DNA from: Pseudomonadota bacterium
GTDB taxonomy: Bacteria; Pseudomonadota; Gammaproteobacteria; Steroidobacterales; Steroidobacteraceae
DNA: 64,000 bases
Assembly (NCBI GenBank): GCA_018241505.1
Contig: JAFEDS010000010.1
Location: forward strand, 613,355 to 677,354
Direction: 5' to 3'
Shown here: in pieces, positions 49,197 to 63,884 of the stretch
Layout of the letters: each line of letters starts with the position of its first letter
Numbering within the stretch: position 1 is the stretch's first letter
Notes under the pieces: generated by a model
Database searches by the model: none
What the model saw: the letters and a program-made list of their open reading frames with translations, nothing else
Told to the model about the DNA's origin: nothing
Made by a program: the position numbers and the translations under genes

Positions 49197-49240
49197 TGGC
49201 GGAGAGAGAGGGATTCGAACCCTCGAAGGGCTTTTGACCC
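49197..49240 (-). repeat. tRNA-Ser 3'-end fragment, candidate attachment site
   Basis: On the minus strand this reads the final part of a tRNA-Ser: CGAGGGTTCGAATCCCTC, then TCTCTCCGCCA. No 5' half of the tRNA is present next to it. Such duplicated tRNA ends mark the far border of elements that integrate into tRNA genes. From the orientation the element would lie to the right, with the intact tRNA beyond the window. Confidence 0.6.
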
Positions 49241-49623
49241 GTCGGAGGGGTCATAGGAATCAGCAACTTGCTGATTTCCCTGCAGATATGGTCCCCCTCA
49301 CATCCCCCCAAATCCCCTTCGCTGGCAGTAGAGCTGGCAGTAGGCCGCCAGATTGTGTCGCGCGCCATTCGTGTCACAGGCGACCTTCCCTCGGCTTGGC
49401 AATCAAATGAGCAGGCATGCGCCGCACTGGGGGACACCCTGCTGGTCGGGGGTGCTCCGGTTGCAGGCACATTGCCCCGACGCGCACTCCTGCTCCTCAC
49501 GGCAAGCCCAGTGATGCAAGGAGTCGCATCGGGTGGCACCCAGTCGCCATCTTCGCCCGGCTTTCGCAGTGCCATTGCGCGTGGCCCTACCGGCCGTGCC
49601 AAAATTGCAGGACGATGCACAAG
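49241..49623. other. Region with no confident gene
   Basis: Between the tRNA fragment and the GIY-YIG gene only overlapping, unmatched readings occur on both strands. No promoter, hairpin or repeat stands out. It probably belongs to the proposed element's left end. Confidence 0.45.
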
Positions 49624-50262
49624 ATGATCCTTGAAGAGCTGCTTCATCCGGAACGTCTTCTGAGTTGTCCTGAGATTCTTGCCAGGCCCTGCCCGGTGAT
49701 CCAAGAGCCAGGCGTGTACGCCTGGTACTTCCGGCAAGTGCCAACCGGCGTACCGATTGAAGGATGCCATATGATCGGAGTGCATACCCTCCTGTACATC
49801 GGTATATCACCGTGCCGACCACCCAAGGCGGGCTCCAAGCGACGTCAATCGCTCCGGAAGCGGGTTCGTTATCATGCTCGCGGAAATGCTGAGGGCTCGA
49901 CGCTTCGGCTTTCCCTCGGCTGCCTCTTGGCGCGCAAGCTCGGAATCGAATTGCGGCGCGTAGGCAGCGGAGATCGAATGACATTCACCGTGGGTGAGCG
50001 GATTTTGTCCGCGTGGATGGCTGAGAATGCATTCGTGGCCTGGACTAAATTTCACGCGCCTTGGGAAGTGGAGGAGGCACTGATCTCTGCGAGCTGCCTG
50101 CCCCTCAACATTGACCAGAACGCCCATCCGTTTGCCGCTCGCTTGTCCTCCATCCGATGTGCTGCCAAAGCTCGAGCGCGCGCACTACCGATATGGAGCG
50201 AGTTCGCGGGAACAGAGTGCGAACCCCTGGAAGGCCCTGATCGTGTTCAGCCAGGAAGATGA
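49624..50262 (+). CDS. GIY-YIG-type nuclease family protein
   Basis: A 212-residue protein with the two strand motifs of the GIY-YIG fold near the N-terminus, EPGVYAWYFRQVP and LLYIGISP, then an Arg-rich helix (RKRVRYHARGNAEGSTLRLS) and a helix-rich region with SAWMAENAFVAWTKF and PLNIDQNAHPF ending AAKARARALP. The Arg and Glu of the active-site type may be present, but nuclease activity is inferred from family membership. An ATG 9 bases upstream is also possible. It is the first gene right of the tRNA fragment. Confidence 0.72.
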   Translation: MILEELLHPERLLSCPEILARPCPVIQEPGVYAWYFRQVPTGVPIEGCHMIGVHTLLYIGISPCRPPKAGSKRRQSLRKRVRYHARGNAEGSTLRLSLGCLLARKLGIELRRVGSGDRMTFTVGERILSAWMAENAFVAWTKFHAPWEVEEALISASCLPLNIDQNAHPFAARLSSIRCAAKARARALPIWSEFAGTECEPLEGPDRVQPGR

Positions 50263-52090: not shown

Positions 52091-53641
52091 TTATGCAGCG
52101 TGCGCCAAAGAAGAGACTTGAGCGGCGAGGTTCCAGGGGAGCAACTCGTCTATCCGATTGATCGGGTGGTCGGCGATCCGGGCGAGCACATGGCGCAGAT
52201 AGGCTTCGGGGTTGAGGCCGTTGAGTTTGGCTGTCCCAATAAGAGAGTAGACCGCAGCAGCGCGATCGCCACCGTCATCCGATCCCGCGAACAACCAGTT
52301 CTTGCGTCCCAGTGCGACTGCTCGCAACGCACGTTCCGCGGTGTTGTTGTCGATCTCCACTCGGCCGTCATCGCGATAACGTGTGAGTGAAGTCCAGCGA
52401 GACAATGCGTAGCGGATCGCTGTTGCCAACTCGCTCTTTTTTGAGAGCGTGGGCAACACGGAACCCAACCAACTATGCAGGCTTTCGAGTTCGGGACCGG
52501 CACGCGCTCGTCGAACTTCGACCCGTTCCGAAGGGGATCGACCGCGGATCTCGCTCTCGATTGCATATAGTCGCCCGATCCGATCGAGTGCCTCCGCGGC
52601 AATCGGCGAGCCTATCGCGACGTGGATCTCGTAAAAGTTGCGACGCGCGTGAGCCCAACACGCCGCCTCCTGGATCTGCTCGCCATATAGGCGTTCAAAG
52701 CCGGCATAGGCATCGGCTTGCAGGATCCCTTTGAAGGACGCCAGATGTGCTCGTGGACGCTCTCCTTTGCGGTCCGGGGAGTATCGAAACAATACCGCCG
52801 GTGGCTCGTTACTCGCCGCCGCTCGATCGTCACGGACATACGTCCACAACCGGCCTTGTTTGGTGGTGCCGCGTCCTGGGCAAAGCACGGGCACCGGAGT
52901 ATCGTCACCGTGGATCTTCTGAGCGCTCAACACATATCGACCCACCGCGCTCACCAGCGGCTGAAGCAATGCGCTCGACTCACCGACCCAATCGCACAAC
53001 GTCGAAGTACTCAGATCCAACTCATCGCGCTTATAGATTTGACTCTGTCGATACAGAGGCAAGTGGTCGAGGTATTTGGACACCAGGACATGAGCAAGAA
53101 AGCCAGGTCCGGCCAAGCCTCGGGCGATCGGTCGACTCGGCGCAGGTGACTGAACGATCTTCTGACACTTCGGGCAGGAGAGCTTCGGACGCACGTGCCG
53201 GATGACTTTGTAGCGCTCTGGCACATACTCGATCATCTCGCTCACATCTTCGCCCAGTACCCGCATCGTGCCGCCGCAGTCGGGGCAGCTGCAGGCACTC
53301 TCATGGACAATCTCTTCGCGCGGCAGATGGGGCGGTAATGCGCGTCGAGCAGGCTTCTCGGCCGGCTCCTGGACTGGCGGGCGCACTTCCGGTGGTCGCT
53401 CTGCCAGGCTCGTCTCCAGATCCTCGATCGACAACTGCATTTGGATGAGCTGCTGATCGAGTTGCTCGGAGGAGCGTCCATACCGTTCCCGCTTGAGTAC
53501 TGCGATCTGGAACCGCAGCTTCTCGAGCTCCAACTTCTGGGAGATGCACAGCGCCTCAGCTACTTCGAGCGCACGACTGCTCTCGATCACCATGCTCTTC
53601 AGAGCGTGAATATCGTCTGGTAAGGTCGCCTGCTTGGGCAT
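52091..53641 (-). CDS. tnpC: IS66 transposase TnpC
   Basis: A 516-residue DDE transposase. The N-terminal coiled-coil region (RFQIAVLKRERYGRSSEQLD) is followed by a zinc-finger-like segment with CSCPDCGG and CPKC, then the catalytic core with the DD(E) acids, the first in KIHGDDTPVPVL and the second in LQADAYAGFERLYG, and the end DNNTAERALRAVALGRKNWL with the Glu. Together with TnpA and TnpB it moves the element by cut-and-paste or copying. It is the last of the three transposition genes. Confidence 0.92.
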   Translation of the reverse strand: MPKQATLPDDIHALKSMVIESSRALEVAEALCISQKLELEKLRFQIAVLKRERYGRSSEQLDQQLIQMQLSIEDLETSLAERPPEVRPPVQEPAEKPARRALPPHLPREEIVHESACSCPDCGGTMRVLGEDVSEMIEYVPERYKVIRHVRPKLSCPKCQKIVQSPAPSRPIARGLAGPGFLAHVLVSKYLDHLPLYRQSQIYKRDELDLSTSTLCDWVGESSALLQPLVSAVGRYVLSAQKIHGDDTPVPVLCPGRGTTKQGRLWTYVRDDRAAASNEPPAVLFRYSPDRKGERPRAHLASFKGILQADAYAGFERLYGEQIQEAACWAHARRNFYEIHVAIGSPIAAEALDRIGRLYAIESEIRGRSPSERVEVRRARAGPELESLHSWLGSVLPTLSKKSELATAIRYALSRWTSLTRYRDDGRVEIDNNTAERALRAVALGRKNWLFAGSDDGGDRAAAVYSLIGTAKLNGLNPEAYLRHVLARIADHPINRIDELLPWNLAAQVSSLAHAA

Positions 53642-53701
53642 GCGCCGAGTATACCAACTCGGTGTTGTATTTAACAGTAAATAAGCTGCAGATACGGCGT
53701 A

Positions 53702-54049
53702 TCAGGCAGCCGCGTGTGGATCGAATGAGCGCTCCACTCTGCGCCAGTCAATCCCTTCCAACAGCATCGACAACTGCGCGCTCGTTAGGCTGACCGTTCC
53801 TTGTGTTGTGTGCGGCCAGACAAACCGGCCTCGCTCCAAACGCTTCGCGAACAAACAAAGACCATCCCCAGACCACCACAGAATCTTGACACGGTCACCG
53901 GCTCGTCCTCGAAAAACGAAAAGCTGACCGGAAAAGGGATCTTCGGATAGTTGGGTCTGAACCAGGGCTGCCAATCCATCGAACCCCTTGCGCATGTCTG
54001 TTGCACCGGCGGCCAGATACACCTGCACACCCGCAGGCAGCGCTATCAT
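53702..54049 (-). CDS. tnpB: IS66 accessory protein TnpB
   Basis: A 115-residue protein (MIALPAGVQVYLAAGATDMR...) matching the IS66 Orf2 family: GFDGLAALVQTQLSEDPFSG, LFVFRGRAGDRVKILWWSGD, LFAKRLERGRFVWP. Its role in transposition is required but unclear. The ATG overlaps the tnpA stop by 4 bases (ATGA), giving coupled translation. Confidence 0.9.
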   Translation of the reverse strand: MIALPAGVQVYLAAGATDMRKGFDGLAALVQTQLSEDPFSGQLFVFRGRAGDRVKILWWSGDGLCLFAKRLERGRFVWPHTTQGTVSLTSAQLSMLLEGIDWRRVERSFDPHAAA

Positions 54050-54468
54050 CGCGACGTCAGAGCGGAAATCAGTTCGCGCAGCAGTGTGGCGTCGAAAGGA
54101 CCCAGGACGCGAAGTCGCCTGCCGGACCCGAAGTCTACCTCGATCGTCGCAGAAGTCGTTCGCGCAGGAGGTGATGCGGCCACCGTGCGCTCCGTCGGCA
54201 ACAACGTCGGCGTGGTCACTTGCACAGGCAGCAAGGCCGGCGGCTTTGACCGCCTCTCCTCGATCAATGTGCCCTGTCGTTCCAATCGGCGCCAAACGGA
54301 CAGCAGGTTGGCATTAACTCCATGCCGCTGTGCAACCTCAGGAACCGAAGCTCCTGGTTGCCGGGTCTCTTCGACCATCGATCGCTTCTCGGCTACGGAA
54401 TACTTGCGTCTCGGACCGCTGCGGCGACCCAGTTTATCTGTCAACACTCTCTCTGGCGAAGTCCCCAT
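54046..54468 (-). CDS. tnpA: IS66 TnpA, HTH protein
   Basis: A 140-residue protein with a helix-turn-helix of the IS3/IS66 orfA type (KYSVAEKRSMVEETRQPGAS, VPEVAQRHGVNANLLSVWRR) and a C-terminal strand-rich part. It is the first gene of the transposition operon and overlaps tnpB by 4 bases. Confidence 0.88.
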   Translation of the reverse strand: MGTSPERVLTDKLGRRSGPRRKYSVAEKRSMVEETRQPGASVPEVAQRHGVNANLLSVWRRLERQGTLIEERRSKPPALLPVQVTTPTLLPTERTVAASPPARTTSATIEVDFGSGRRLRVLGPFDATLLRELISALTSR

Positions 54469-54577: not shown

Positions 54578-54724
54578 CGAAAATCGTCCACTTGGTCCAG
54601 CGCTTTGAGGAATGGCTCGGATTGACCTGAGGGCCGTTTGCTCCAGTTGATGCCATAGGTGCGACAAACCTTTGCGCGGACGCCGCTGCCAGCACGCCGG
54701 TGTAGTTCTCTTTTCTGGGAAGTT

Positions 54725-54755
54725 CTTCTCTTTTTGGAGAAGTACGCCGTATACT
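54725..54755 (+). promoter_or_regulatory. Inverted repeat and -10-like element before the ubiquitin-like operon
   Basis: CTTCTC, spacer TTTTTG, GAGAAG (54725-54742) is followed by TATACT at 54750-54755, a good -10 element, 37 bases before the HTH gene. The repeat would overlap the -35 region, as expected for a self-regulating HTH repressor. A clear -35 was not found. Confidence 0.5.
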
Positions 54756-54791
54756 TGGTCACACGCACTGAACTGCAAGGGGACCAACGTC

Positions 54792-55160
54792 ATGAAACTC
54801 ACGCCATTTGGGGAGGCTGCACGATCGCTACGCATGCGTTTCGATGTGTCAATGAAGTCAATGGCGGACTTCATGGGCATCAGTTCCTCGCATCTGAGCG
54901 GCATTGAGTATGGCGAGAAACGCCTGTCTGCGAAGCATATTGACTGTGCTGTGGCGTTTTTTCGCGACCGTGCCTCGGACGAAGAAATCGCGAAATTAAG
55001 ACGCGCGGCGGAACAGTCGAGGGACATGGTTGATACGTCGAAGCTAAACCCGGACGCGCGAGGCCTGGTCGCCGCGTTCGCGCGACGGCTGCAGGAGGGT
55101 GACACGCCGACATCCGAGATCCGCGAGTGGATCACCAATCGAAAGGAGCCTGGCAAATGA
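54792..55160 (+). CDS. XRE-family-like HTH regulator paired with ImmA/IrrE protease
   Basis: A 122-residue protein with a Cro/XRE-type helix-turn-helix near the N-terminus (FGEAARSLRMRFDVSMKSMA, FMGISSSHLSGIEYGEKRLS) and a C-terminal helical part. Its stop overlaps the start of the ImmA/IrrE metallopeptidase gene by 4 bases (ATGA). Such pairs act as repressor and protease switches, where the protease cleaves or removes the repressor under stress. AGGGG precedes the ATG. It is the first gene of the ubiquitin-like operon. Confidence 0.78.
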   Translation: MKLTPFGEAARSLRMRFDVSMKSMADFMGISSSHLSGIEYGEKRLSAKHIDCAVAFFRDRASDEEIAKLRRAAEQSRDMVDTSKLNPDARGLVAAFARRLQEGDTPTSEIREWITNRKEPGK

Positions 55161-55762
55161 TCTTCGGCAACGCACGGGGATCTCGCACGCCTTCAGGATT
55201 GAAGGTGGCACCCATGAGTTACAAGAAGCTGGAAGCTGTGGCGGAGGGTGTGCGCCGGTATCTACCGCTAACTGAGGCATACGACGGCCAGCGCTGGAGC
55301 GTGAATGCGCAGCAAATTCTCGAGGACACCCTGCCGCGGGCTGGCTTCAACTTTCACATCGCGGAAGACAGCGAGTTGCAGCAGTGCGCAGCATTCGCAG
55401 TGCCGGAGCACAACTTGATAGTCGTCCGGCAGGACGTTTACGAAGGCTTGTTCACCGACGAGGTGTTCTCGCGCAGCACGGTCGTGCACGAACTCTCGCA
55501 CATAGTGCTGCGGCATGCTGTGACGCTGCACCGGGGAGCACCGGTAGGACAGCACGAGTTCTATGAAGACAGCGAGTGGCAGGCGAACGCGCTTATGGCG
55601 GCGATCATGATGCCGGTCCCAGCATGTGCGGCGGCCGCTTCTGCGCAGGACCTCGCCACAATGTGTGGGACCAGCGTCCTGTCGGCGACCTATCGGATCG
55701 ACGGCCTGGTGAAGCGCAAAGTCATTCCCGAAAAGAGCCTCAATGGCAAGCTCTTCGGGTGA
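55157..55762 (+). CDS. ImmA/IrrE-family metallopeptidase
   Basis: A 201-residue protein with the zinc motif HELSH in RSTVVHELSHIVLRH (H-E-x-x-H) and the third metal ligand candidate Glu in EDSEWQANALMAAIMMPVPA, typical of ImmA/IrrE peptidases. Together with the HTH gene it likely forms a stress-sensing switch: the protease inactivates the repressor. ATG at 55157 overlaps the HTH stop. It is followed by a 221-base gap, then the conjugation genes. Confidence 0.85.
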   Translation: MIFGNARGSRTPSGLKVAPMSYKKLEAVAEGVRRYLPLTEAYDGQRWSVNAQQILEDTLPRAGFNFHIAEDSELQQCAAFAVPEHNLIVVRQDVYEGLFTDEVFSRSTVVHELSHIVLRHAVTLHRGAPVGQHEFYEDSEWQANALMAAIMMPVPACAAAASAQDLATMCGTSVLSATYRIDGLVKRKVIPEKSLNGKLFG

Positions 55763-55983
55763 GCGGAACCGAGGACAGCAGCAGAGGAGGAACCAAGATG
55801 CCCAGCGAATAAAAACGGCCGAGTACGTTAATACCCGGCCGCGGTAGGCAAGCTACAGAAGCAACTCGCCAGCCTAGTCACTTGCGATTCTCTGTAGTCC
55901 CCCGTGCCGCTGTCAATGCGACTGCGTGCCGGTTGCGGCACGTGGCGCTGTGTTCTAGTGCTTTCTACGGAGAATTTGCAGTT
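55763..55983. other. Gap between protease and ubiquitin-like genes
   Basis: No gene is evident. A strong GAGGAGG site precedes a four-codon mini reading frame (ATG at 55798, MPSE then stop), perhaps a relic or a leader. A GGCCG-type hairpin (ACGGCCG ... CGGCCGC near 55815-55845) may attenuate transcription into the next genes. Confidence 0.4.
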
Positions 55984-56301
55984 ATGCCAGTTGACGTTCA
56001 GACCCATGGGGAGCGCCATGCGGCGCCAAACAAGACGATCGCCGTTCGCGTCCGTTACCTCGGCGCTCGCCATCCCTTCGAGGATCCGAAAGCCCCCGCC
56101 GGGGAGAACTTGGCGGAGCTGAAGCCTCGCGTGCTCGACTTCTTCAAGCTGAAGGAGGGCCCGGTGGACGGCGGAACCAAGGTGTACGTCTTCGCGATGG
56201 ATGGCCTCGTACTCACCGACCTCAACACGACCTTGGGGGTATTGGCCAAGGAGCATCACGAGCTCAAGCTCGATCTACTCGAGCGCTTCGAGCAGGGTTG
56301 A
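55984..56301 (+). CDS. Ubiquitin-like (multiubiquitin-family) modifier with a C-terminal Gly
   Basis: A 105-residue protein related to the prokaryotic multiubiquitin domain family: NKTIAVRVRYLGARHPFEDP, GTKVYVFAMDGLVLTDLNTT and LGVLAKEHHELKLDL. It appears to hold one domain. It ends LERFEQG, so a free Gly is exposed, as needed for adenylation by E1 and transfer to a target; many relatives have a Gly-Gly end, and here only one Gly is seen. It should be the modifier of the operon, attached to targets by the E1 and E2 that follow. GGAGA lies 11 bases before the ATG. Confidence 0.8.
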   Translation: MPVDVQTHGERHAAPNKTIAVRVRYLGARHPFEDPKAPAGENLAELKPRVLDFFKLKEGPVDGGTKVYVFAMDGLVLTDLNTTLGVLAKEHHELKLDLLERFEQG

Positions 56302-56305
56302 TCCG

Positions 56306-56749
56306 ATGGCCACCGACCTCGAACTCGCCCTCTTCGCGGAGGAGTTGTTGGAGGTTCGGCGGTTACCGGAAGCCGGCCGCTGGCAGCTCGAGCGGGACGA
56401 ATCCGTTCCGCTCGGGCTGTTCGCGGTAATGCATCCGCTCTCCAAACCGTCGGACCTGTATCGGGCGCGGCTACGTTGGACGGATTTCTTCGGGCCGCCC
56501 TCGCTGAAATTTATCAACATGACGACCGGAGTCGAAAATGATCCGACGGCATGGCCGCTGTGTTTCGGCTTTCGACCGACTTCGCTCGACGCTTGCCTGC
56601 CGTGGACGGCAGAAGGACACGCTCATCATCTGGAGTGGAAGAACTCGTCCGCGCAGTCATTCCCTGTGGTGGATGCGCCAATGCAGTACGCGCTGCTGCG
56701 GGTGCAATCGTCGCTTGACAACACCTACCAAGGGAGGGGGCAGCGATGA
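56306..56749 (+). CDS. E2-like ubiquitin-conjugating enzyme
   Basis: A 147-residue protein of the prokaryotic E2 family found beside ThiF-type E1 and JAB genes. The core reads PPSLKFINMTTGVENDPTAW, then SLDACLPWTAEGHAHHLEW, where the Cys of DACLPW is the likely thioester-forming residue. It lacks the flanking helices of eukaryotic E2 proteins. It follows the Ubl gene by 4 bases and its stop overlaps the JAB start (ATGA). Confidence 0.8.
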   Translation: MATDLELALFAEELLEVRRLPEAGRWQLERDESVPLGLFAVMHPLSKPSDLYRARLRWTDFFGPPSLKFINMTTGVENDPTAWPLCFGFRPTSLDACLPWTAEGHAHHLEWKNSSAQSFPVVDAPMQYALLRVQSSLDNTYQGRGQR

Positions 56750-57255
56750 CCGAATTGCATTGGACTTTACCGCAGGAACTGTTGGACACATCGATCGAGT
56801 GCATGCGGCCCCATGGTGCACGCGGCAATGAAGGGCTCGCGCTGTGGTTTGGCAGCGGTGATGAACGGCACGTGCAATTCACCCATATCGTCGAGGTCTT
56901 CGGACCCGGGTTTACGACAACACCTCTCTACATGAGCCTGTCGTTACATGCCATGGCCGCACTGACTGACTTTGCCGACGGGCACGGGGTATTTCTCGCC
57001 GGCCAGATCCACTCGCATCCGGGCAAATTCATTGAACTTTCGGAACTCGATGAGGCACATGGCATCCGGGTACCGGGCTATCTATCCGTTGTCTGCCCGT
57101 TCTACGCGCAGCGTGCACTCGAAGGCCTGGGCTCCTGCGGCGTGCACACCTTCGATGGCAACCGATACCGCCGCATGGAAGTCGATGAAGTCAGGCGGCG
57201 CATCGAGGTGCGCAAAGTTCCCCTCAAAAAGCTCCGTCTGGAGGTTCAAGCATGA
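56746..57255 (+). CDS. JAB/MPN-family metallopeptidase (deubiquitinase-like)
   Basis: A 169-residue protein with a complete JAMM motif: GQIHSHPGKFIELSELDEAH, matching HxHP followed by SxxD. The Glu that activates water could be the Glu in FTHIVEVFGPGF or nearby. In these operons it trims the modifier to expose its C-terminal Gly or removes it from targets. The single-Gly end of the local Ubl means a maturation step may not be needed. It overlaps both neighbours by 4 bases, so translation is coupled. Confidence 0.83.
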   Translation: MTELHWTLPQELLDTSIECMRPHGARGNEGLALWFGSGDERHVQFTHIVEVFGPGFTTTPLYMSLSLHAMAALTDFADGHGVFLAGQIHSHPGKFIELSELDEAHGIRVPGYLSVVCPFYAQRALEGLGSCGVHTFDGNRYRRMEVDEVRRRIEVRKVPLKKLRLEVQA

Positions 57256-58796
57256 ATGTCTCAATCGAGCAAGCAGTGAGCCGCCCCTTGGCCGTCGCGG
57301 AGGGTTTGCTACGGCGCCCGATCGACGAGACAGTTGTGTACTCTAAGGTCGTGGTCCTTACGGGCGAGACCGGTGTTGTAGCGACTGCAAATGGGCGTTG
57401 GTGTTTTCTCGACGCCCTGGCACTGCTGTCGCGCGTGGTGGGCCACCTCATCGTGGCGGTGCCGCCCGAGGCGAAACACTTGCGCCAGGAAGTGGACGCA
57501 TACTGCGAACGCGCTTGGACGCGCGGTGCCATTAGCATCGTTGATGGCGCAGAGCTGACGCTGCTTCGTGGCGCGCACGCCGTCCTCAACATTGGCGCCG
57601 AAATGCGACCCGAACTGCCGTGGACATCGATCAACGCGAACGGCTGGATTGCTCGGGTGTCCTCACGCACGAAGCTGCCTGCTGACACGCACGAGCCAAA
57701 CCCGATAGCGGCGTTGCTGGCCGCTTCGCTCGGGGTCACTGAGATCTTCAAACGCATCTTTGAAGTTCCGGAGGAGATCGCCCCCCTACTGGGCCTGACG
57801 CAGTTCTCCCTATACGAGCTGACAACGTCACCAACTTGCTTGGGACCGGCCCTGCCCTCCCAGCTTCGGTTTCCCGACACGCTGCTCACTGGGGCCGGCG
57901 CGATCGGAAACGCGATTGCACTGCTACTCGCCCAGCTGCGGATCGAGGGACGGCTCCACATCATCGACCGGCAGCGCTATCGCGACGAGAATATGGGGAC
58001 GTGCCTGCTCATGGAGAGGAACGGCTGGCTGAAAGAGCCCAAGGCATTGCGCCTTGCGGCCTGGTTGAAACAGCACAGCATCCTCAACGTGACAAGTGAT
58101 GAGATCACGATCGAGGCAGCCATCGCGGACAACCGGCTGGACGGTCTGACGATCGATCTAGCACTGAACGGCCTTGACGACCCAGGCGCGCGCCGCGAAA
58201 CGCAGCGCCTTTGGCCATCAGTAATCATCGACGGTGGCATCAACGAAGTCGGCGCCGCGGTCACTGAGTACCGGCTGGATTGGCAAGAGTGTGGATGTCT
58301 GATGTGCTGGTTCGATGCGCCCCAACTAGATGAAAAAGCCCTGCAGAGCCGCTGGACGGGCCTGCGTCGAGACTCGCTCGATGATGCGAATCGCCAGCTG
58401 TCCGATCGAGACATCGTGACAGCAGACGAGTCGAAGCGCGAGTGGTTGCGGGCACGGCAACGCGAGGGCAAGACTGTCTGCTCCGTAGTTACGGAGGCAC
58501 AGCTCGCAGCACGTCTTGGCGTTGCTGCAAACGAAGGATTCAGACCGTCCGTGCCTTTTGTCGCGGCAGCATCGGCGTCACTGGTGGTCGGAGCGGCAGT
58601 GAGAGCGTTTGTCTTCCCGCAGGAACCGGCACCTTCGATGTTTCAAATCGGAAGTCTTTTCCTCGGGCCGGCACACAGCGCGACGGCAAAGCGGTCGCCT
58701 TCGGAACGGTGTCAATGTGTATTGCAGCGGAAACTCATCATGGCAGTGCACGCGCGAAGGATGCGCAATTGTGATCGGAAGAGTGACGCAATCTGA
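57252..58796 (+). CDS. ThiF/E1-like ubiquitin-activating enzyme
   Basis: A 514-residue protein with an N-terminal domain of about 190 residues and an E1/ThiF adenylation domain. The nucleotide-binding loop reads TLLTGAGAIGNAIALLLAQL, followed by HIIDRQRYRDENMGTCLLME, which holds the acidic and Arg residues for ATP. Later DWQECGCLMCWFDAP and CSVVTEAQ carry candidate catalytic cysteines. It should activate the Ubl's terminal Gly by adenylation and pass it to the E2. It overlaps the JAB gene by 4 bases and ends the operon. Confidence 0.83.
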   Translation: MNVSIEQAVSRPLAVAEGLLRRPIDETVVYSKVVVLTGETGVVATANGRWCFLDALALLSRVVGHLIVAVPPEAKHLRQEVDAYCERAWTRGAISIVDGAELTLLRGAHAVLNIGAEMRPELPWTSINANGWIARVSSRTKLPADTHEPNPIAALLAASLGVTEIFKRIFEVPEEIAPLLGLTQFSLYELTTSPTCLGPALPSQLRFPDTLLTGAGAIGNAIALLLAQLRIEGRLHIIDRQRYRDENMGTCLLMERNGWLKEPKALRLAAWLKQHSILNVTSDEITIEAAIADNRLDGLTIDLALNGLDDPGARRETQRLWPSVIIDGGINEVGAAVTEYRLDWQECGCLMCWFDAPQLDEKALQSRWTGLRRDSLDDANRQLSDRDIVTADESKREWLRARQREGKTVCSVVTEAQLAARLGVAANEGFRPSVPFVAAASASLVVGAAVRAFVFPQEPAPSMFQIGSLFLGPAHSATAKRSPSERCQCVLQRKLIMAVHARRMRNCDRKSDAI

Positions 58797-58945: not shown

Positions 58946-60667
58946 CTATTCATACAACCGAAAACCAAGGACTGCCAGGTCGTATCGTTGAACGAAGGCA
59001 CGGCAGGTCGAAACAAAACCAAATGCATCAGCAACTGAGATAGTTTCAGCTCGATGGATGAACATGTCTCTTTTTGCACCCAGATGTTGGAGCTGCTGCC
59101 TGTACGGCAGCCGAGATCCCTTTGCGAGGATCGCACGCTCCTTTAGAGTTCGCTCGAAAGCACCGAACGCAGCATTGAATCCAATTGTTGTACCTTTTGC
59201 ATCCGCATGAATCAACTCATCTGAGTCCATATGCAGCAAGCAGCCGTACAAGAAATGCTCCAGACCATGATAAGCAGCCACGGTCGCGAGAGGTCCATCG
59301 GTGTAGTCTTCAGACAGTACGAGTTGCTCGCTTTTTAGGAGAAGAGATCTAGCAGATGCTAGATAGGAGTTTAAGGTGCCCGGCCGTTCGGCTCGGGACT
59401 GAAAATACTCCACCACCTGGGCTGTGAGGTGTGTCTCCCATAGGCCGCTTTTCTCCCACCAAAGTCCAGGAGCCCTCTGATGTTGAAGAAGAAACCTCTC
59501 TCCGCGAGCAATTGACGGATGATCGGACGGCATGTCGGTGTACCTCAACGCCTCTAGCACCTGCGTCGTTGTTGAGATTGGAAGAGTTGGCGATCCAGAA
59601 TTGGTGGAACTCCAGCTTCCATCCTCCGCTTGCGCCCCTACTAGCCATCGCTGACCACGGGTGCAAGCATCTTTAGCCTCCTCAGCAGATCCATATCGCG
59701 CAAAAAACAATATCGCGCCGGAGGTCGTCCCTGCGTCGTCCACCAAAGATGGTGGACCCTTATCCTGCGCTCCACGGCTCCAGTCAGACCAAGCGCCGTT
59801 GCGACGCTGCAAACGAAGCACTGAAGGCGTCGCTCTGCGCGCGATTGGCAATAACACATGCCGAACTGTGCGGCATCGCGCATAGGCAACCATCAGGTCC
59901 ACGAACCGTGGAAACTCGAACGCGGCATTCTCACCTCCCGAATGAACCGTTGCCGCAAATTGTCGGACCTCATCCCCGAATTCCCGAGCTTCACTGAGAA
60001 GTAGTTCCCGAGCGTCCTTCGGTTCGAAGATCTCGTAATATCTCAGATAACTCGTGTACCAGTAGGGCTCGTAACCCCGCGCTGATGTCTGCATGGCCTT
60101 TCCACTTAAGAGGTCTTGGCGACGACGTGCAATGCTGTCTTTGAATCGCCTTCGGGACTCCTCAACACCAAACACACATAGAGCGTCCGGCGGTCCGTCA
60201 TCGCCTTCCAGGAGAATTTCATGAGCGAGCGCAGCCCGAGCTTTGTCAATACTGGAAGGTATCTGGGCTAAATCACCTTCAATCTCGGTCCGCCTATTTG
60301 TGATCGCAGCATCGATCACCTTCTCAGAAGGGCTCTTAGACGTGCGTGAGCGTCCAGTCCTGGATCGTCCCAGCCGACGAGCGCTTGATGCCACTGACTT
60401 CAGGTATCGCTTGATCGCCTTGACTGAACCGTCATCCGTAATGCCAGCTTTCGCTGCTAGCTCACACGCCTCGGAAATAATCACGGACACCGGCGAGACC
60501 TTAATTCCTCGCGCTAACGCCTCTTTCACCTTGAGGGTGGAAACCATGGCACGCATCGCCAATGACTCATACACGCCTTGCTTGAACCGGATCAGCGCTG
60601 CGTACTGATCGAGCAAGTTTTCATGTTTGGCAGAAAAATGAGAGTAGTCAGTCGGAGCTAAAGACAT
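58946..60667 (-). CDS. Terpene-cyclase-like toroid protein with C-terminal HEPN-like Rx4H
   Basis: A 573-residue protein convergent with the E1 gene. The middle (about 270-470) has repeated helix pairs with QxxxGxW-like motifs of prenyltransferase/squalene-cyclase alpha-toroids: LRLQRRNGAWSDW, AQAEDGSWSST, LLQHQRAPGLWWEKSGLWET. No DxDD cyclization motif is visible, so an enzymatic cyclase role is unlikely. The last 100 residues are helical and hold KRDMFIHRAE, an Rx4H pattern as in HEPN RNases. The N-terminal third is helical with no family match. I infer a defense-type effector joining a ligand-sensing toroid to a HEPN domain; this is a hypothesis. The start is the ATG at 60665-60667. Confidence 0.65.
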   Translation of the reverse strand: MSLAPTDYSHFSAKHENLLDQYAALIRFKQGVYESLAMRAMVSTLKVKEALARGIKVSPVSVIISEACELAAKAGITDDGSVKAIKRYLKSVASSARRLGRSRTGRSRTSKSPSEKVIDAAITNRRTEIEGDLAQIPSSIDKARAALAHEILLEGDDGPPDALCVFGVEESRRRFKDSIARRRQDLLSGKAMQTSARGYEPYWYTSYLRYYEIFEPKDARELLLSEAREFGDEVRQFAATVHSGGENAAFEFPRFVDLMVAYARCRTVRHVLLPIARRATPSVLRLQRRNGAWSDWSRGAQDKGPPSLVDDAGTTSGAILFFARYGSAEEAKDACTRGQRWLVGAQAEDGSWSSTNSGSPTLPISTTTQVLEALRYTDMPSDHPSIARGERFLLQHQRAPGLWWEKSGLWETHLTAQVVEYFQSRAERPGTLNSYLASARSLLLKSEQLVLSEDYTDGPLATVAAYHGLEHFLYGCLLHMDSDELIHADAKGTTIGFNAAFGAFERTLKERAILAKGSRLPYRQQLQHLGAKRDMFIHRAETISVADAFGFVSTCRAFVQRYDLAVLGFRLYE

Positions 60668-62371: not shown

Positions 62372-63352
62372 TCAACGACTGGGAGGCGCCCGCTCGCGAG
62401 ACGCGGCCAGGATCTGCTCCGCGATAAGCTGCCGATCAGTTCCAACGTTTGGCATTGTTACAATAAATCTTCTGACCCACGCGGCAGTATCACGCTGTCC
62501 TGATCGCTCCATGAAATCAGCGACAGCCGCCCAGCCACGCTCAACTTCCAGACGCGTTTGTCTCAGTCGGAAGTCGCCTTTCTCAGGTTGAACATGTCCC
62601 GAGCGCAGCTCCCGCGTGATAGCCTCGACCCGCTGTTTCATGAAAGTAGATTCACCTCGAGCAGCAGCCCGGAAGATTCCCGCTTTGCGATTGTGATGCT
62701 GGGAGCCGCGGACTGCCCGCTCGGTGGCATTCGCCTCCACACCGAATTCACGAAGGTACCGCGCAAAGTCCCGTCGCCACTCTCGGAGCGTTGCCTTGTA
62801 GATATTCAGTCGTTCGCCGCGCTCGCTCATGGCTTTGACGACAACATGCACATGCGGATGCCCTTGGTCGGTATGCAGTGCCATTGCATATCGATGCTGA
62901 GCTCCGAACTTCTCCGTTGCAAACTTCCTGACCGCCTTGTGAACCCTGTTGGCCGGCGTACCTTTGGGCATCGAGAACACGAGGTTATGGACCAACTTCG
63001 GTGGCTTGCGCCCTGCGGCAATTCCCCTTTCGGTGTGGCGGCGCACCGCATCGACCTCAAGATCCCAGTCGTTCAAAAGCTCTCTCCCGAGCCCCTTCTC
63101 AGTCAGAATTGCTCCGTCATCTGTCTCAAGATCGGCACGCTCCTCCAAGTACTCTAGGTGTGTCGCGACCCCGCGAATCGTTCTCGCTCCCCCTGAGACC
63201 TTGATCATTACTTCGGGAACGCCGCGCGCCGTGCGACTGGCGTGTGCGACCTCAGCCGGAGTGAGCGGCCGATGGCCAGGACCACTACGACCATAAGAGG
63301 CGATATCGAGCAGGGGTTTCTGCGACCGCAGATCAACGAGTCGCTTCGGCAC
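62372..63352 (-). CDS. MOBP-type relaxase (MobA/VirD2-like)
   Basis: A 326-residue relaxase. The nucleophile Tyr candidate lies in GVATHLEYLEER, and the metal-binding motif III is clear as HTDQGHPHVHVVVKA (three His). It nicks one strand at oriT and stays bound during transfer. It is short, with no primase or helicase part, so it depends on a helper conjugation system. The start is GTG at 63350-63352, overlapping the end of mobC by 20 bases. Confidence 0.85.
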   Translation of the reverse strand: MPKRLVDLRSQKPLLDIASYGRSGPGHRPLTPAEVAHASRTARGVPEVMIKVSGGARTIRGVATHLEYLEERADLETDDGAILTEKGLGRELLNDWDLEVDAVRRHTERGIAAGRKPPKLVHNLVFSMPKGTPANRVHKAVRKFATEKFGAQHRYAMALHTDQGHPHVHVVVKAMSERGERLNIYKATLREWRRDFARYLREFGVEANATERAVRGSQHHNRKAGIFRAAARGESTFMKQRVEAITRELRSGHVQPEKGDFRLRQTRLEVERGWAAVADFMERSGQRDTAAWVRRFIVTMPNVGTDRQLIAEQILAASRERAPPSR

Positions 63353-63884
63353 TGCCGCTCTCCCAAGACTTCGTGTTCGCCAGCATCAGGCTCTTCACGT
63401 GATCCCTCAATCCCTTGAGCGCCCGGAGGACAGCTCGCAGATCTTCTGGTGTGGGCCCAGCCAAATTTCCCGTTTGGTTGGCAACCCGCGCAATCTGATT
63501 GAGGTTACGCCCGATCATGCCGAGCTCCCCTATCGCGCGCTTGAGTTCACTGAATTCACGATCCGGCAGCGGAGCCACTCCCCGAAGGTGCGCTCGCAAC
63601 ACCATCGATCCATAAGTGGCCGAAGCCATTCCCCTTGAGTCTGCACGCTCCCGCAGCAGGACGTGATCCTCCGGGCGTAGTCGCACGTAAAGTCGCGCGC
63701 CGCGCGCGACCGGTTCAACAGGAGCGACGGGTTGCGCATTCGTAATTCCGGAATTTTGCACGACCAGCTCGACGAGCCTTTGCAAAAAGGCCGAGTCGCT
63801 CAGATTGCGTTGTTGCGCCAGGGAGTGCAGCGCCGCTTTGATCTCCGGCGATGCTCGAAAGGCGATGAGTGGGTTCGCAGCCAT
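63333..63884 (-). CDS. MobC-like relaxosome accessory protein
   Basis: A 183-residue protein with an N-terminal ribbon-helix-helix-like region (FRASPEIKAALHSLAQQRNL) and the MobC signature ELGMIGRNLNQIARVANQTG. MobC proteins bind near oriT and help the relaxase melt DNA. Its 3' end overlaps the relaxase start, and a nic-like site lies 36 bases upstream of its ATG. Confidence 0.82.
   Translation of the reverse strand: MAANPLIAFRASPEIKAALHSLAQQRNLSDSAFLQRLVELVVQNSGITNAQPVAPVEPVARGARLYVRLRPEDHVLLRERADSRGMASATYGSMVLRAHLRGVAPLPDREFSELKRAIGELGMIGRNLNQIARVANQTGNLAGPTPEDLRAVLRALKGLRDHVKSLMLANTKSWESGSAEATR

What the first reader, a model, noticed from the sequence alone, without database searches (positions are those of the whole stretch)
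54725..58796. Bacterial ubiquitin-like conjugation operon with its own HTH/ImmA-IrrE switch
Six genes in a row, four of them overlapping, encode an HTH repressor, an ImmA/IrrE protease, a ubiquitin-like modifier ending in a single Gly, an E2 (Cys in DACLPW), a JAB peptidase (HSHP...SELD) and a ThiF-type E1. The set is complete for conjugation, and the front pair would switch it on under stress or phage attack. Related ubiquitin-like operons (described computationally by Aravind's group, and as the Bil antiphage system) are known, but the fixed linkage to an HTH/ImmA switch and the one-Gly end deserve study.
Basis: partly seen in the sequence, partly recalled or inferred. Interest (0 to 1): 0.85.

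Follow-up and report, generated by a model that had tools for sequence, protein, structure and literature searches.

The report
Bacterial ubiquitin-like operon with antisense RNA
A bacterium carries a complete ubiquitin-like protein-tagging operon of a known antiphage kind, and the unexpected part is not the repressor-and-protease switch in front of it but a small RNA, predicted to be made from the opposite strand of its leader, that recurs in front of two different kinds of ubiquitin-like operon.

Summary
The six genes are real: HTH, ImmA/IrrE peptidase, ubiquitin-like protein (Ubl), E2, JAB, E1. Order and matches make the last four a distant branch of the bilABCD kind (BilD 1.5e-22, BilC 7e-9). 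The switch is of the CapH/CapP kind, already in print beside other bacterial Ubl operons. It is not fixed: of 31 Bil-like loci 14 have HTH+ImmA, others WYL, CapK/S-like or nothing evident; the window's switch is nearest to one relative (62/58%), its core to another (52-66%). The single terminal Gly is conserved through the clade.

The new point lies in the 221-base gap before the Ubl gene: a 4-codon ORF with a strong ribosome site on the sense strand and, opposite, a sigma70-like promoter, two stem-loops and a U-run: a predicted ~74-nt antisense RNA. A covariance model trained on four Bil-like loci found two more Ubl operons blind, one with a different, JAB-E1 fusion cargo; a further locus (L015) shares the layout only. 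I propose two-key control as in tisB/istR: a damage-cleaved repressor plus an antisense-RNA threshold. Expression and function are untested.

The parts
54706..54743 (+). Tandem operator candidate for the HTH protein: TTCTCTTTTCTGGGAAGT (54706-54723) and TTCTCTTTTTGGAGAAGT (54726-54743), 20 bp apart
   Evidence: Pattern TTCWCTTTTTGGMGAAGT: 2 matches with up to 3 mismatches in the window, 0.05 expected; exact copy upstream of the closest HTH relative in L015, none in L012 whose HTH is only 27% identical. The pattern was derived from the window and L015, so the exact hits are by construction; the second tandem copy (3 mismatches) is not.
54792..55160 (+). HTH (Xre/CapH-like) repressor, 122 aa
   Evidence: HTH_3 1.5e-4; PADLOC HTH_VI 5.3e-7, capH 2.6e-4
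55157..55762 (+). ImmA/IrrE (M78, CapP-like) metallopeptidase, 201 aa, HELSH
   Evidence: Peptidase_M78 4.6e-6; capP 4.5e-6; only M78 hit in the genome
55798..55812 (+). Micro-ORF MPSE* with AGGAGG ribosome site, in the leader before the Ubl gene
   Evidence: Same layout in 5 of 5 clade loci; motif in 49 of 40000 background 60-mers; also in L062 and L064 (by eye)
55807..55880 (-). Predicted ~74-nt antisense RNA, two stem-loops, U-run at its 3' end
   Evidence: MFE z -6.2 on minus, -1.9 on plus; covariation; model R1 trained on 4 loci found 2 more beside Ubl operons
55815..55842 (-). 12-bp terminator stem of the antisense RNA
   Evidence: (48 of 48 cells pair on minus, 38 of 48 on plus, four loci)
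55887..55916 (-). Sigma70-type promoter TTGACA-18-GAGAAT of the antisense RNA
   Evidence: 10 of 12; 10 of 12 also in L012, L013, L014, 8 of 12 in L015
55984..56301 (+). Ubiquitin-like modifier, 105 aa, one beta-grasp domain, ends ..FEQG (BilA-like)
56306..56749 (+). E2 (BilB-like), 147 aa, catalytic C97
56746..57255 (+). JAB/JAMM isopeptidase (BilC-like), 169 aa
   Evidence: PADLOC BilC 7e-9; 8tyx_B 8.5e-8
57252..58796 (+). E1 (BilD-like), 514 aa, C410 candidate catalytic Cys, CxxC..CxC possible zinc site
   Evidence: PADLOC BilD 1.5e-22; 8tyz 9.3e-7; C349, C352, C410, C487, C489 invariant in 8 of 8

Best explanation
A Bil-type conjugation operon under two-key control. Shown: the gene set, the recurring but exchangeable regulators, the conserved micro-ORF and the conserved structured unit with promoter and terminator on the opposite strand. 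Inferred, key 1: the HTH protein sits on a tandem operator and represses its own promoter; in the window HTH, ImmA and the four core genes lie in one direction and are probably one transcript; on DNA damage or phage attack ImmA, as a CapP-like peptidase, cleaves the HTH protein. Inferred, key 2: a ~74-nt antisense RNA made steadily from its own promoter covers the 5' leader of the Ubl mRNA and keeps stray transcripts silent (by pairing, RNase cleavage or blocking the micro-ORF and the ribosome entry that follows it); only a burst of mRNA exceeds it. Inferred output: E1 loads Ubl, E2 passes it to targets (phage structural proteins in characterised Bil), JAB removes it. The design matches tisB/istR-1, where a LexA-repressed mRNA is also held by a constitutive antisense RNA, but the cargo is a conjugation system.
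For: Core. Switch. Leader RNA: promoter plus terminator in 5 of 5 clade loci and not in the other 23 loci with a Ubl gene, two of which (L011, L025) have 8-bp terminator-like stems without a fitting promoter; background for the pair 20 of 3000 random 250-mers at promoter >=8/12 and 9 of 3000 at >=10/12, drawn from the same five loci so true sites may be included. Fold z-scores minus -6.2, -3.9, -5.1, -4.5, -4.7, -5.3, -6.4 against plus -1.9, -1.7, -1.4, -0.5, -1.5, -0.4, -3.2 for window, L012, L013, L014, L015, L062, L064. Covariation on six loci: 93.8% of 113 cells paired, 6 pairs changed on both sides, 0 of 500 shuffles as high on these; 61 of 500 as high on number of pair types. Model R1, trained on four Bil-like loci, found L062 (2.5e-8) and L064 (3.8e-4) in 379 genomes, both directly before Ubl operons in the same orientation. 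A 10/12 promoter on the mRNA strand begins 62, 129 and 153 bases before the micro-ORF ATG in L014, L062 and L064, so the leader is in the mRNA there. Precedent passages: CapP cleaves CapH on ssDNA (PMC10904395); IstR-1 is a constitutive antisense RNA on LexA-controlled tisB (PMC2826370).
Against: No expression data for the RNA, the micro-ORF or the operon. L015 is missed by both covariance models and its promoter is only 8/12; it counts by layout alone. R1 alone does not separate true from chance: four other hits lie away from Ubl genes, and one (G1549, 3.0e-4) has a better E-value than L064; adjacency to a Ubl operon is what marks L064. One further R2 hit (G570, 5.0e-4) also has no Ubl gene beside it. 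In L064 the sense strand also folds well (z -3.2). No consensus promoter was found by scan upstream of the HTH gene. ImmA cleavage of this HTH, and DNA damage as trigger, are analogy. No link to phage was seen: no relatives in phage records or viral contigs with the queries used.
Confidence: 0.55

Rival explanations
1. Plain CapH/CapP-controlled Bil operon; the opposite-strand hairpin is only a terminator that stops antisense transcription from running into the regulator genes, and the RNA has no regulatory role.
For: The terminator faces the regulator genes; 23 other loci with a Ubl gene lack the unit.
Against: Also conserved are a promoter at similar spacing (87-101 bases from -35 to stem), a first stem-loop that varies in a paired way (83% of its cells paired, 2 of 7 pairs changed on both sides), and a 4-5 codon micro-ORF; a mere terminator needs none of them.
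Confidence: 0.2
2. Sense-strand attenuator: translation of the micro-ORF next to the hairpin senses ribosome or tRNA state (phage host shut-off) and opens the Ubl ribosome site; the antisense features are by-products.
For: Micro-ORF with a strong ribosome site in the 5 clade leaders and in L062 and L064 (by eye); a further GC inverted repeat before the Ubl start in the window and L012.
Against: The stem pairs fully only on the minus strand (48 of 48 against 38 of 48 cells) and no sense-strand terminator was found in the five leaders.
Confidence: 0.12
3. The small RNA acts in trans, or is a part of the effector: for instance an RNA sensor or cofactor bound by the conjugation enzymes, or an RNA antitoxin.
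For: Two stable stem-loops, one strong copy per genome, beside the operon; portable between two Ubl operon types.
Against: It is wholly complementary to the leader, which makes cis control the simpler reading; no strong copy apart from the operon in the nine genomes.
Confidence: 0.08
4. Not a defence system but a housekeeping or stress modification pathway on a mobile element.
For: No phage link seen; MobA relaxase and NikA/MobC genes lie 3.6 kb downstream; Bub operons have not been shown to protect against phage (passage of PMC13373217).
Against: Match to BilC and BilD, whose kin conjugate Ubl to phage tail proteins (passage of PMC12948488).
Confidence: 0.2

Closest known systems
Bil (bilABCD, bacterial ISG15-like), above all the branch of PDB 8TYX/8TYZ/8TZ0 and pNGR234a
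   Same: Order Ubl-E2-JAB-E1; BilC and BilD profile matches; top VIA row of the E2 model is 8tz0_C, tied with eukaryotic E2s; E1 with N-terminal region, adenylation domain, Cys and four further conserved Cys
   Different: Other side of the E1 tree (midpoint-rooted, 100/99 support); in the E2 the His at +8 of CEHH is not conserved and the last His is at +11 instead of +13; x-Q-G end that would need no trimming (inference); antisense-RNA leader
CapH/CapP (HTH + M78 peptidase controllers of immune operons)
   Same: Adjacent, overlapping HTH and M78 genes before an immune-type operon; capP and capH profiles weakly matched
   Different: Co-directional with the operon here; cleavage and ssDNA response untested
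Bub / multiubiquitin-type operons (type 6e of Iyer 2006, PMC1779556, section 14 read)
   Same: Ubl conjugation genes, frequent HTH+peptidase or CapK/CapS neighbours (PMC13373217); the same RNA leader stands before a JAB-E1 fusion operon in L062
   Different: Window has separate JAB and E1 and an E2 with active-site Cys; L062's first gene has no Pfam or NCBIfam match and only a weak pairwise match (0.012) to an annotated multiubiquitin protein, so calling L062 Bub-like rests on its JAB-E1 fusion
tisB/istR-1 (type I toxin-antitoxin, E. coli)
   Same: Damage-cleaved repressor on the mRNA promoter plus a constitutive antisense RNA over a leader with an upstream ORF (PMC2826370, passages read)
   Different: No sequence relation claimed; cargo is a four-gene conjugation operon, the RNA lies within the leader, and the repressor is of the Xre/ImmA kind

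Membership tests
Bil (bilABCD) | Four genes Ubl, E2, JAMM DUB, E1 in this order | tested here: met
   same order in 26 of 26 sources with all four
Bil (bilABCD) | E1 with inactive + active adenylation domains and a Cys domain (BilD) | tested here: met
   PADLOC BilD over 37-330 at 1.5e-22, 8tyz over 111-366, C410 invariant in 8 of 8; by sequence only, the E1 fold was not modelled
Bil (bilABCD) | JAMM DUB (BilC) | tested here: met
   H89, H91, S99, D102 invariant in 6 of 6
Bil (bilABCD) | E2 of UBC fold with CEHH motif (C138, E144, H146, H151 in BilB; review PMC11354881, passages read) | tested here: inconclusive
   UBC fold; C97, E103 and H108 invariant in 15 of 15; H at +8 present in the window but not in all relatives; last invariant His at +11 rather than +13
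Bil (bilABCD) | BilA of two ubiquitin-like domains (as that review states) | tested here: not met
   One domain, residues 17-105. The 98-aa Ubl of pNGR234a, whose E1 is 8TYZ-like by eye, is as short, so this is a feature of one Bil branch, not of the whole kind; I file the window as a variant, not as a plain member
Bil (bilABCD) | Protection against phage by conjugation to virion parts | not testable with these tools
   needs experiment
CapH/CapP | Adjacent HTH repressor and M78 peptidase before an immune operon | tested here: met
CapH/CapP | Peptidase cleaves the repressor on binding ssDNA | not testable with these tools
   precedent only
Bub / multiubiquitin operons | Multi_ubiq-type Ubl and JAB-E1 arrangement | tested here: not met
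   Ubl has no Pfam match at E<=0.1; JAB and E1 are separate genes. The genome-wide Multi_ubiq search was uninformative because no control rang
Known Rfam RNA family | Match above gathering score | tested here: not met
   best E 0.51, 19.4 bits against 95 needed

The most novel reading that the evidence does not exclude
A new family of cis-antisense RNA with a paired micro-ORF forms a portable control cassette for bacterial ubiquitin-like conjugation: it stands before Bil-like operons under several kinds of regulator (two HTH/ImmA lineages, WYL, fused HTH-ImmA) and before an unlike JAB-E1 fusion operon, so that these immune-type pathways are held by an RNA threshold as type I toxins are.
Probability: 0.55. 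Interest if true: 0.8.

Novelty: new variant of a known kind. Interest (0 to 1): 0.62.

Why it matters
How bacteria keep ubiquitin-like immune pathways silent until needed is open; in print are protein switches (CapW, CapH/CapP, CapK/CapS; PMC13373217). A conserved antisense RNA and micro-ORF in the leader would add an RNA layer, would help explain why protein switches can be swapped so freely, and gives a sequence tag (models R1, R2) for finding such operons. It also makes a direct test possible: remove the RNA promoter and ask whether conjugation becomes constitutive or toxic.

Tried and rejected
Rejected: 'fixed HTH/ImmA linkage'. Rejected: single-Gly end as special. Rejected as regulators: HTH-ImmA genes downstream of the core in L018-L020, which in L018 and L019 stand beside a small gene that looks RelE/HigB-like by eye and so resemble a toxin-antitoxin pair; and the HExxH protein of L044, which is not M78 by Pfam. 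Rejected: the hairpin as sense-strand terminator (none found). Rejected as chance: R1/R2 hits in L063, L065, L066, L067, L068 and L161 (no Ubl genes beside them).

Led nowhere: E1, E2 and ImmA scans of viral contigs, E1 in phages, single-sequence E1 scan of genome contigs, DNA pattern for the RNA promoter in viral contigs: 88 stretches, the 80 listed read with R1, 0 hits at E<=0.01. Rfam. Multi_ubiq in the own genome, uninformative. Papers: two that I took from memory to be Chambers 2024 and Lau 2022, and Gong 2025 (cited in PMC13373217), are not held; their content is recalled or comes from papers citing them. A search for a small or antisense RNA in such operons gave 43 papers of which 10 were listed, none on this by title and abstract start; antisense, small RNA, sRNA, leader, untranslated and noncoding are absent from the main text of PMC13373217. 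This is not proof that it is unpublished.


Full report

Relatives. An E1 profile scan of genome contigs gave 26 loci and plasmid searches gave more (E1 2 records, JAB 15, E2 2). Of 37 sources, 26 gave all four core proteins by phmmer and all 26 keep the order Ubl-E2-JAB-E1. The system is rare: E1 matches in 3 of 60 relatives, 4 of 398 genomes of the phylum and 3 of 398 of the family of the L014 genome; each count includes the window's own genome or the centre, and the other matches are weak (E 1e-7 to 8e-4). A tree of 32 E1 proteins, drawn with a midpoint root, puts the window in a clade of five with 100/100 support (window, L012 Burkholderiaceae MAG, L013 Ramlibacter MAG, L014 Trinickia, L015 Pelomonas), next to Deinococcus, Acidobacteria, Mesorhizobium and Brevundimonas, with an actinobacterial clade beside them; the pNGR234a type, like 8TYZ by eye, lies in the other half. 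Left out of the tree: L002, L003, L005-L007, L016, L028 (short, distant or duplicate), L045, L046, L051 (distant), and L062 and L064, found later.

The switch is exchangeable. Over 31 Bil-like loci whose flank I could read, 14 have HTH+ImmA (window, L012, L015 co-directional; L009, L021-L026, L037 divergent, in L023 and L024 within one ORF; L004, L035, L064 divergent and fused), 1 has M78 without HTH (L017), 1 WYL (L014), 2 CapK/CapS-like genes (L008, L027), and 13 none of these (L010, L011, L013, L018-L020, L029-L033, L044, L047). Not counted: L002, L003, L005-L007, L016, L028, L034, L036, L045, L046, L051 (short, truncated, duplicate or without the four-gene core); of these L045 also shows an HTH and a cut ImmA-like gene divergent from a JAB and an E1. 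The five Streptomyces loci are near-identical, so 14 is not 14 independent cases. Not every regulator was scanned with Pfam: L004 rests on annotation and an HEFAH motif, L012, L015 and L023-L026 on phmmer matches and HExxH. Part of the listing was cut; for L029-L031 I rely. The CapK/CapS label rests on DUF4325 (2.1e-6) and a weak HATPase match (0.0059) in L008, phmmer matches of L027 to them, the gene order, and the description in PMC13373217. Inside the clade, window against L012 is HTH 27, ImmA 30, Ubl 56, E2 66, JAB 54, E1 52%, while window against L015 is HTH 62, ImmA 58, Ubl 45, E2 47, JAB 49, E1 45%; the E1 tree pairs window with L012 (94/98) and L015 with L014, which has WYL (97/92). 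So switch and core have separate histories. Related HTH/ImmA pairs also occur with no core gene in the 10-13 kb read around them (L042, L043). Against chance: the own genome has one M78 hit at E<=1e-3, this one.

Operator. A pattern shared by the window and L015 upstream regions, TTCWCTTTTTGGMGAAGT, recurs as a second tandem copy 20 bp away in the window (2 matches with up to 3 mismatches, 0.05 expected). It is absent from L012. This fits an HTH operator; binding is untested.

The leader. Between ImmA and Ubl lie 221 bases. In all five clade loci the leader holds a strong ribosome site, ATG, 3-4 more codons and a stop (MPSE, MTQK, MAQK, MTTYK, MRKR), against 49 of 40000 background 60-mers. Right after it comes a stem that is a terminator on the minus strand, and 87-101 bases from its end a minus-strand promoter (10, 10, 10, 10 and 8 of 12). 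Stem 2 pairs in 48 of 48 cells on the minus strand and 38 of 48 on the plus strand over window and L012-L014 (alignment set by hand). Minus-strand z-scores are -3.9 to -6.2, plus-strand -0.5 to -1.9. None of the other 23 loci with a Ubl gene has the unit; two have 8-bp terminator-like stems (L011, L025).

Blind test. Model R1, built from four loci (its RNAalifold structure has stem 2 and some pairs in the promoter that I take to be spurious), matched only those four at E<=0.01 among 38 held sources, so it missed L015; in nine genomes it hit at the four training operons and in two weak rows, and not in the L015 genome. In 379 genomes of the order of the L012 genome it gave 7 hits at E<=0.01: that genome, two new ones beside Ubl operons (L062, 49.4 bits, 2.5e-8; L064, 32.7 bits, 3.8e-4) and four without Ubl genes (25.8-31.7 bits; one with E 3.0e-4). 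So L062 is clear by score, L064 by score plus place. L064 is the same Bil-like operon (E1 3e-146, JAB 4e-58, Ubl 2e-30; E2 not listed). L062 has another cargo: a 234-aa protein without a family match and a 483-aa JAB-E1 fusion (ThiF 4.6e-29; JAB motif by eye). Both have the micro-ORF (MNNQ in L064, MEYK in L062) and 67% identical divergent HTH-ImmA proteins. So here switch and leader are shared by two different Ubl operons, whereas in the clade of five the leader stays and the switch changes. Six-locus covariation: 93.8% of 113 cells pair and 6 pairs change on both sides, 0 of 500 shuffles as high; 61 of 500 reach the number of pair types; slid controls 35-43% (alignment and structure come from these sequences, which favours the structure). 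R2 on 340 genomes of the class found the window and one GC-rich hairpin without Ubl genes.

Mechanism. In L014, L062 and L064 a 10/12 promoter on the mRNA strand lies upstream of the micro-ORF, so the micro-ORF and the antisense target are in the 5' untranslated region there; in the window and L012 no sense promoter of 8/12 or more lies in the 400 bases before Ubl, in L015 only 8/12 ones, so the six genes are probably one transcript. I infer two-key control as in tisB/istR-1 (PMC2826370, passages): the repressor is cleaved by ImmA after damage (by analogy with CapP/CapH, PMC10904395 passage) and the mRNA must then exceed a constitutive antisense RNA. The conjugation step follows Bil (PMC11354881 and PMC12948488 passages).

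Setting. IS66 genes (52091-54468), a MobA relaxase and NikA/MobC (62372-63884) flank the operon, so it may lie on an integrated mobilisable element; ends were not defined.

Noticed in passing
L013:1165-4280: A second Ubl-type operon (Prok-E2_E 3.2e-33, JAB-E1 fusion, DUF6527, then a gene that by eye looks like an SppA/ClpP-type serine protease) sits directly upstream of the Bil-like operon and its RNA leader in a Ramlibacter MAG.
   Followed up: partly
L062:5416-6987 and L064:3353-4909: Fused HTH-ImmA regulators 67% identical are each followed by a PIN-like gene (weak PIN match 0.0036 in L062 only) divergent from the Ubl operons: a possible three-part controller.
   Followed up: partly
L017:511-2541: In an Acidobacteria MAG the divergent controller beside the Bil-like core is an M78 peptidase (5.5e-16) with a sigma-factor-like protein (Sigma70_r2 0.0031, below cut-off) and an unknown protein, perhaps protease control of a sigma factor.
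   Followed up: no
L016:6700-9401: A Nitrosomonadales MAG carries an E1 of this kind with no Ubl, E2 or JAB match in the locus, abutting a TnsD (Tn7-like) gene on the other strand.
   Followed up: no
window 58946-60667 (-): 573-aa protein with a squalene-hopene cyclase-like domain (SQHop_cyclase_C 1e-8) just downstream of the operon on the other strand.
   Followed up: no
window 52091-54468 and 62372-63884 (-): IS66 element and a MobA relaxase with NikA/MobC: signs of a mobilisable element around the operon.
   Followed up: partly
L015:5454-5471 and downstream: After the exact operator copy the half-site GCGAAGT recurs 20 bp further on, the same 20-bp period as the tandem sites of the window (by eye).
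   Followed up: no
G000: The window's genome is 7.88 Mb against 1.8-6.9 Mb for the genus mates searched, with 5.67% contamination; its large size may be partly composite.
   Followed up: no
window 49417-50262: GIY_YIG_2 domain protein (1.9e-30) next to tRNA-Arg (49197-49281), which may be near the element's edge.
   Followed up: no
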